A DNA stretch of 14,619 nucleotides, from NCBI GenBank assembly GCA_902805995.1, contig CADCUU010000237.1, forward strand, positions 1 through 14,619, read 5' to 3'. Position numbers and translations under genes: made by a program. The number at the start of each line of letters is the position of its first letter. Positions within the stretch are counted from its first letter, which is position 1. This DNA is from an uncultured Rubellimicrobium sp. (lineage in GTDB: Bacteria > Pseudomonadota > Alphaproteobacteria > Rhodobacterales > Rhodobacteraceae). Shown here in pieces: positions 5,771 to 10,795 of the stretch. Below the pieces are notes generated by a model. That model searched no databases. It saw nothing but the letters and a program-made list of their open reading frames with translations, and was not told where the DNA came from.

Positions 5771-9245
<3,475 letters not shown>

Positions 9246-9250
<5 letters not shown>

Positions 9251-9662: not shown

Positions 9663-9998
9663 ATGACCTACATCGTCAACGACAACTGCATCGCCTGCAA
9701 ATACACCGACTGCGTGGAGGTCTGCCCCGTCGACTGCTTCTACGAGGGGGAGAACATGCTGGTGATCCACCCCGACGAATGCATCGACTGCGGCGTGTGC
9801 GAGCCCGAGTGCCCCGCCGACGCGATCCGCCCCGACACCGAGCCCGACATGGCCAAGTGGGTGGAGTTCAACCGCAAGTATGCCGAACGCTGGCCGGTGC
9901 TCACCACCAAGAAGGACCCCCTCCCCGGCGCAGAGGAGATGGACGGCAAGCCCGGCAAAATGGACCTCTTCTCCGAGGCGGCTGGCCCGGGTAACTAA
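9663..9998 (+). CDS. fdxA: Seven-iron ferredoxin FdxA ([3Fe-4S] and [4Fe-4S])
   Basis: A 111-residue cytoplasmic electron carrier. Cysteines at 9, 12, 17, 21, 25, 40, 43, 46 and 50 match Azotobacter ferredoxin I (8, 11, 16, 20, 24, 39, 42, 45, 49) with a constant shift of one. By that alignment Cys9, 17 and 50 hold the 3Fe cluster and Cys21, 40, 43 and 46 the 4Fe cluster; Cys12 and Cys25 are the non-ligand positions. The C-terminal half ([22 protein letters not shown]) is the usual extension of this class. The ATG at 9663 starts directly at the conserved MTYIV; the ribosome site is weak. It sits between hslR and carD, a neighbourhood I recall as common in related genomes. Its redox partner is not indicated here. 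Confidence 0.96.
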
Positions 9999-10213: not shown

Positions 10214-10220
10214 GGAAGGA
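10214..10220 (+). promoter_or_regulatory. Intact Shine-Dalgarno of carD
   Basis: GGAAGGA lies 5 bases before the carD ATG at 10226. It shows that translation initiation for the interrupted carD frame has not decayed. Confidence 0.75.
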
Positions 10221-10225
10221 CCCCC

Positions 10226-10738
10226 ATGACCACCAAGACCCGCAAGAGCGATTTTCACCCCAACGATTTCGTCGTCTACCCCGCCCATGGCGTGGGCCGC
10301 ATCGTCTAGGTCGAGGAGCAGGAGGTCGGTGGCTTCAAGCTCGAACTCTTCGTCATCTCCTTCGAGAAGGACAAGATGACCCTGCGCGTGCCGACCAACA
10401 AGGCGACCGAATCCGGCCTGCGCGCCCTGTCGAACGCCGACACCGTGGCCCATGCCATGAAGACCCTGAAGGGCAAGGCCAAGGTCAAGAAGGCCATGTG
10501 GTCCCGCCGCGCCCAGGAATACGAGCAGAAGATCAACTCGGGCGACCTCATCGCCATCGCGGAGGTCGTGCGCGACCTGCACCGCGCCGACGACCAGCGC
10601 GAGCAGTCCTATTCCGAACGCCAGCTCTACGAGGCCGCCCTGGAGCGCCTGACGCGCGAGATCGCCGCCACCACGGGCCGCGACGAAAGCGCCGCCTCCA
10701 AGGAGATCACTGAGGTTCTCGTCGGCCGCGCCGCCTGA
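10226..10738 (+). pseudogene. carD: CarD/CdnL-family RNA polymerase-binding regulator interrupted by in-frame TAG at codon 28
   Basis: CarD binds the RNA polymerase beta subunit and stabilises open promoter complexes. The 171-codon frame starts well (FVVYPAHGVGRIV, the RNA polymerase-interacting Tudor-like domain). It meets TAG at 10307-10309, then continues without another stop through VEEQEVGGFKLELFVISFEKDKMTLRVP and the helical DNA-binding domain (MWSRRAQEYEQKI, DQREQSYSERQLYEAALERL) to TGA at 10736-10738. Homologues have a small residue (Ser/Ala/Thr) at the TAG position, so one base change from TCG would suffice. Length, Shine-Dalgarno and terminator are all normal, and I see no frameshift or other decay. 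An internal ATG at 10376 (Met51), preceded by AAGGA at 4 bases, could restart a 120-residue C-terminal fragment lacking most of the polymerase-binding domain. Explanations are a sequencing error, a recent null mutation with another copy elsewhere, or amber readthrough. The family is certain; its functional state is not. Confidence 0.9.
10307..10309 (+). other. In-frame amber codon inside carD
   Basis: Reading from the ATG at 10226, codon 28 is TAG within ATC-GTC-TAG-GTC-GAG. Conservation resumes immediately after it in the same frame, so this is a substitution and not an indel. Confidence 0.95.
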
Positions 10739-10761
10739 TCCCCTCCGCCTCACCCGAATCG

Positions 10762-10795
10762 AGGCCGCGTCCAAGCCGGACGCGGCCTTTTTGTT
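10762..10795 (+). terminator. Rho-independent terminator after carD
   Basis: GGCCGCGTCC (10763-10772) and GGACGCGGCC (10778-10787) form a perfect 10-bp stem, extended by an A-T pair, with loop AAGCC. TTTTTGTT follows directly. It begins 24 bases after the carD stop and ends the transcription unit. Confidence 0.93.

What the first reader, a model, noticed from the sequence alone, without database searches (positions are those of the whole stretch)
10226..10738. carD interrupted by a single in-frame amber codon while everything around it is intact
CarD/CdnL is reported as essential or nearly so in related alphaproteobacteria. Here codon 28 is TAG, yet the start, Shine-Dalgarno, conserved downstream protein and terminator are all preserved. 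Possibilities are an assembly or sequencing error (TCG read as TAG), a fresh null allele tolerated because of a second carD, readthrough by an amber-suppressing tRNA, or restart at Met51. Readthrough in an essential transcription regulator would be a genuinely unusual control point.
Basis: partly seen in the sequence, partly recalled or inferred. Interest (0 to 1): 0.75.

Follow-up and report, generated by a model that had tools for sequence, protein, structure and literature searches.

The report
carD with one stray stop codon
The only copy of a growth-regulator gene found in a draft bacterial genome carries one stop codon near its start, most likely a reading error or a very fresh mutation rather than a new way of controlling the gene.

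Summary
A carD/cdnL gene (10226-10738) has an in-frame TAG at codon 28 (10307-10309); the rest of the gene is intact and conserved. The host is a fragmentary draft of a Rubellimicrobium-genus bacterium (504 contigs, 85% complete). No second carD was found. Of 100 other genomes searched, 92 have a carD match and none of these has an internal stop; codon 28 is serine in 103 of 109 relatives' loci.

Nothing supports recoding. TAG ends ordinary genes here. Release factors RF2 and RF1 (cut by a contig end) are present. None of the 21 anticodons recovered reads UAG, but the tRNA set is incomplete. The RNA around the stop is not unusually structured. In-frame stops in conserved genes are rare: 2 clear cases in about 117 ortholog comparisons, carD included.

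At 117 other amino-acid columns invariant in 11 relatives, this carD differs at none. The stop is therefore either not in the organism (consensus error, my preferred reading) or very young (null allele or minority strain). CdnL is dispensable in Caulobacter, so a living null is conceivable. Restart at Met51 could give only a fragment lacking most of the RNA-polymerase-binding domain. Only reads or another sample of the species can decide.

The parts
10226..10738 (+). carD/cdnL gene, single CarD match found in this genome, interrupted in frame
10307..10309 (+). in-frame TAG at codon 28; serine in 103 of 109 relatives' loci
10216..10220 (+). Shine-Dalgarno-like AAGGA of the normal start
10253..10423 (+). 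CarD_TRCF_RID domain (RNA-polymerase-interacting part), split by the stop
10367..10371 (+). AAGGA before Met51, possible internal restart signal; lies in codons of a conserved protein stretch (present in 69 of 109 relatives' loci)
10376..10738 (+). 120-aa frame from Met51; lacks the first 50 residues of CarD
10761..10789 (+). terminator-like hairpin after carD
9663..9998 (+). ferredoxin gene upstream (name from its cysteine pattern, recalled); kept beside carD in 11 of 11 relatives compared

Best explanation
The TAG is a single-codon change in the assembled consensus of a fragmentary draft genome, most likely an assembly or sequencing error (or a minority-strain base taken into the consensus), with an intact carD in most living cells of the species. 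Shown: one codon departs from all relatives, the other invariant positions of the gene are kept, no recoding machinery was found. Inferred: that the base is not in the population's typical genome.
For: Draft of 504 contigs, 85.04% complete, 5.1% contamination. Single carD; intact in all 92 of 100 other genomes that have a match. Of 118 columns invariant in 11 relatives this gene differs only at codon 28; the 117 others (268 nonsynonymous sites, 104 columns after the stop) are unchanged, which bounds unconstrained drift to about 0.011 per site, against an own-branch dS of about 0.16-0.23 (using distances). Its dN/dS to 7 congeners is 0.11-0.25, inside the range 0.03-0.33 among the 21 congener pairs. 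A second clear in-frame stop, also with conserved sequence on both sides, lies in an oxidoreductase gene 321 bases from a contig end, so such stops turn up in about 2 of 117 genes.
Against: No reads could be inspected. Stops are not common in this assembly: 0 of 76 BPD_transp_1 matches, 0 of 37 adh_short and 1 of 122 ABC_tran, that one at a rearranged junction. So the consensus is not broadly poor, and a real young mutation fits the same data. The mean dN/dS of this carD to congeners (about 0.19) is a little above the mean among congeners (about 0.14) (averaged), which could mean slight relaxation.
Confidence: 0.57

Rival explanations
1. A genuine, very recent nonsense allele: the sampled strain makes no full-length CarD and lives with slow growth, or relies on a compensating change elsewhere.
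For: Caulobacter CdnL is not essential for viability; its absence gives slow growth and filamentation (PMC5324124, abstract and passages). The rest of the gene is intact, as expected for a young change. PMC7918605 (abstract; first part of Results) reports that in-frame stops in bacterial genes tend to persist only at the time scale of population polymorphism.
Against: CarD is described as essential in several Alphaproteobacteria (PMC8407463, passages); none of the 92 other genomes with a match carries a stop.
Confidence: 0.34
2. Internal restart at Met51 yields a 120-aa C-terminal CarD fragment that keeps some activity.
For: AAGGA lies 4 bases before ATG 10376, and that ATG is conserved in 109 of 109 loci.
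Against: AAGGA falls in codons of a conserved protein stretch and occurs in 69 of 109 relatives' loci with intact genes, so it is not an adaptation to the stop. The fragment lacks most of the RNAP-interacting domain. Caulobacter mutants unable to bind RNAP are cold-sensitive (PMC5324124).
Confidence: 0.05
3. The UAG is read through, by a suppressor tRNA or by stop context, so that CarD is made at low level as a control point.
For: The sequence after the stop is as constrained as in relatives.
Against: No CUA anticodon among 21 anticodons recovered (set incomplete). TAG ends 91 of 510 coding-like frames in a 724-kb sample and 13 of 98 ortholog ends tested in an 854-kb sample. RF1 is present, cut by a contig end. 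The RNA from 10290 to 10389 folds no better than shuffles (z -0.80). The stop is shared with none of the relatives compared.
Confidence: 0.03
4. An ordinary pseudogene backed by a second intact carD in the missing part of the genome.
For: Completeness is 85%.
Against: 7 of 7 congeners have one CarD match; the gene shows no decay.
Confidence: 0.01

Closest known systems
CarD/CdnL family of RNA polymerase-binding transcription factors (PF02559 + PF21095; solved chains 2lwj_A, 4ilu_A)
   Same: Domain order and length; 83-90% identical to the CarD of 7 congeners; same upstream neighbour as in 11 of 11 relatives
   Different: One in-frame TAG at codon 28
In-frame stop codons in otherwise conserved bacterial genes (PMC7918605)
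   Same: Single stop, purifying selection on both sides
   Different: That study focused on stops shared by orthologs of two or more species; here none of the relatives compared shares it

Membership tests
CarD/CdnL | N-terminal RID domain PF02559 | tested here: met
   Over the family cut-off when read across the stop, 54.6 bits; the first piece alone 26.9 bits
CarD/CdnL | C-terminal CarD domain PF21095 | tested here: met
   87.8 bits
CarD/CdnL | Uninterrupted reading frame | tested here: not met
   TAG at codon 28
Programmed UAG readthrough / amber suppression | Stop conserved in orthologs | tested here: not met
   0 of the 92 other genomes with a match; 0 of 109 loci
Programmed UAG readthrough / amber suppression | UAG-reading tRNA | tested here: inconclusive
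   None among 21 anticodons; tRNA set incomplete
Programmed UAG readthrough / amber suppression | UAG not used as a general terminator, or RF1 lost | tested here: not met
   TAG ends many genes; RF1 fragment at a contig end
Programmed UAG readthrough / amber suppression | Full-length protein made | not testable with these tools
   needs mass spectrometry
Decayed pseudogene | Relaxed constraint after the stop | tested here: not met
   0 changes at 104 invariant columns after the stop

The most novel reading that the evidence does not exclude
The UAG is real and fixed in this species, and low-level readthrough sets a reduced dose of CarD, a dose-control switch on rRNA transcription made by one codon.
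Probability: 0.03. Interest if true: 0.6.

Novelty: not a real feature. Interest (0 to 1): 0.13.

Why it matters
If the TAG were real and fixed, a living member of a group where CarD is often listed as essential would be running without it or by readthrough, which would test how far CarD is needed. As it stands it mainly warns that a single consensus base of a draft genome should not be read as biology without reads.

Tried and rejected
General recoding of TAG: rejected, since TAG terminates 91 of 510 coding-like frames in a 724-kb sample and 13 of 98 ortholog ends tested.

An assembly full of stops: a first count gave 21 of 153 ortholog hits with stops, 26 stop places. I judged these by eye from the alignments, overlapping frames and a frame statistic. 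Most look like antisense or other-frame reading, sequence before a start, or gene ends. Two are clear: carD and a TAA at L159:321. The rows at L152, L270, L255:6255 and L151:31/196 are not settled by the statistic, so a few more real stops are possible. A codon-position filter kept 116 of 165 hits, with 10 stop places, of which I count only carD; L159:321 had been dropped by that filter and is counted back in, hence 2 of 117; the other 48 dropped hits are outside that figure. Six frameshift-like pairs looked like adjacent genes or other-frame reading; 5 of the 6 were looked at closely. A stricter first pass gave 1 of 38. The contig sample is not random: 60 contigs were taken because earlier searches had named them, 20 by number.

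Reference-free scan for interrupted frames: 23 candidates among 510 stops here, carD and L159:321 among them; control G004, 13 among 314. Both pieces of 9 of the other candidates were tested with Pfam; no family spanned a stop. L138:6447 and L169:4496 stay undecided; the remaining candidates were not tested.

TAG in an ABC_tran match on C144: the sequence before it is not an ABC protein, so it is a junction rather than a point stop. The genus-wide ABC_tran list was capped to the best matches and is not used for counts. Viral contigs: no relative of carD found.

Full report
What is there. The window is contig C237 of a 3.03-Mb draft with 504 contigs, 85.04% completeness and 5.1% contamination. 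Its carD is 87-90% identical to that of four named isolates of the genus and 83% to a further draft. The carD gene runs 10226-10738, and codon 28 is TAG at 10307-10309. The two pieces match the two ends of the CarD family: PF02559 positions 1-18 before the stop, and CarD_C with the weak rest of PF02559 after it. A ferredoxin-like gene stands upstream here and in 11 of 11 relatives compared, so the locus is where it belongs.

Is there another carD? PF02559 matches two places in the genome: a 1190-codon frame on C137 (the size of Mfd, a name recalled, not tested) and this gene. A CarD protein search gives one match here and one in each of 7 of 7 congeners. Of 101 genomes searched, this one included, 93 have a match, and this one alone has a stop inside.

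What do relatives have at codon 28? Serine in 103 of 109 loci, otherwise Asn 2, Thr 2, Ala 1, Met 1. Some loci are the same genome fetched twice; among 100 distinct DNA sequences serine is at 94. None of the 109 has an internal stop. The 80 loci are the best of 583.

How old is the stop? Among 11 relatives 118 columns are invariant. This gene departs from them only at codon 28. The other 117 columns hold about 268 nonsynonymous sites with no change, so unconstrained evolution since the stop can be at most about 0.011 per site (95%), while the branch leading to this genome has a synonymous distance of roughly 0.16-0.23. The stop is therefore absent from the organism, or younger than about 5-7% of the branch, or without effect on selection (readthrough). 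The bound assumes full loss of constraint after the stop and takes dS as the neutral rate. Over the whole gene, dN/dS to congeners averages about 0.19, a little above the 0.14 among congeners (averaged).

Is the genome full of such stops? Family matches read with stops counted: 1 of 122 ABC_tran, 0 of 76 BPD_transp_1, 0 of 37 adh_short; the one ABC case follows unrelated sequence and is a junction. Comparing 937 frames of the congener G004 with 854 kb of this genome gave 116 hits whose changes fall mostly at third codon positions. By inspection carD is the only interrupted one among them. One further gene outside that filter, an oxidoreductase (L159, label from recall on its sequence), has a TAA where G004 has a tyrosine codon. 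That makes 2 clear cases in about 117; a few other flagged rows stay unsettled. The rate is low enough that the assembly is not poor throughout, and high enough that meeting one such gene by reading is no great surprise.

Is TAG read as an amino acid here? TAG closes 91 of 510 coding-like frames in 724 kb and 13 of 98 ortholog ends tested. One gene in the window also ends in TAG (the frame 1200-1760). A release-factor domain piece matches RF2 best (below the whole-protein cut-off because only a piece was given), and an RF1 gene is present up to a contig end (310 bits against a whole-protein cut-off of 400). Of 22 tRNA matches found genome-wide, none has anticodon CUA, nor has any in the sampled contigs (39 hits with overlap between loci, 21 anticodons). 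Tyr, Trp, Lys, His, Cys and Ile tRNAs are also missing from that list, so this is weak. The RNA from 10290 to 10389 is not unusually structured (z -0.80).

Restart. AAGGA stands 4 bases before ATG 10376, so a 120-residue fragment could be made. It would lack the first 50 residues, most of the RNA-polymerase-interacting domain. In Caulobacter, mutants unable to bind RNAP are cold-sensitive, and lack of CdnL gives slow growth and filamentation but not death (PMC5324124, abstract and passages).

Essentiality. PMC8407463 (passages) calls CarD essential in several Alphaproteobacteria. [quoted passage not shown] Two Rhodobacter sphaeroides CarD papers cited by PMC11034885 (passages) are not held.

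Verdict. I put consensus error or minority-strain base at 0.57, a genuine young null allele at 0.34, restart at 0.05, readthrough at 0.03, hidden second copy at 0.01. The split between the first two rests on judgement, not on a test, because reads are out of reach and the protein database that might have held another copy of the species was switched off.

Noticed in passing
L159 (G000:C91):321-323: In-frame TAA near the 3' end of an oxidoreductase gene, where congener G004 has a tyrosine codon; conserved sequence on both sides; close to a contig end.
   Followed up: partly
L155 (G000:C144):about 290-370: An ABC transporter gene lacks its start and follows an unrelated small frame (HlyU-like, a label from recall) across a TAG; looks like a rearrangement or assembly junction.
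   Followed up: partly
L276 (G000:C312):2-802: The RF1 gene is cut by the contig end.
   Followed up: no
L138:6447 and L169:4496: Two long coding-like frames interrupted by TAG and TGA; Pfam pieces gave no family across the stop, so they may be neighbouring genes or further breaks.
   Followed up: partly
window 8000-9250: The C-terminal part of the helicase-like gene varies strongly among relatives (38-58% identity in the seven longer matches) and looks low in complexity.
   Followed up: no
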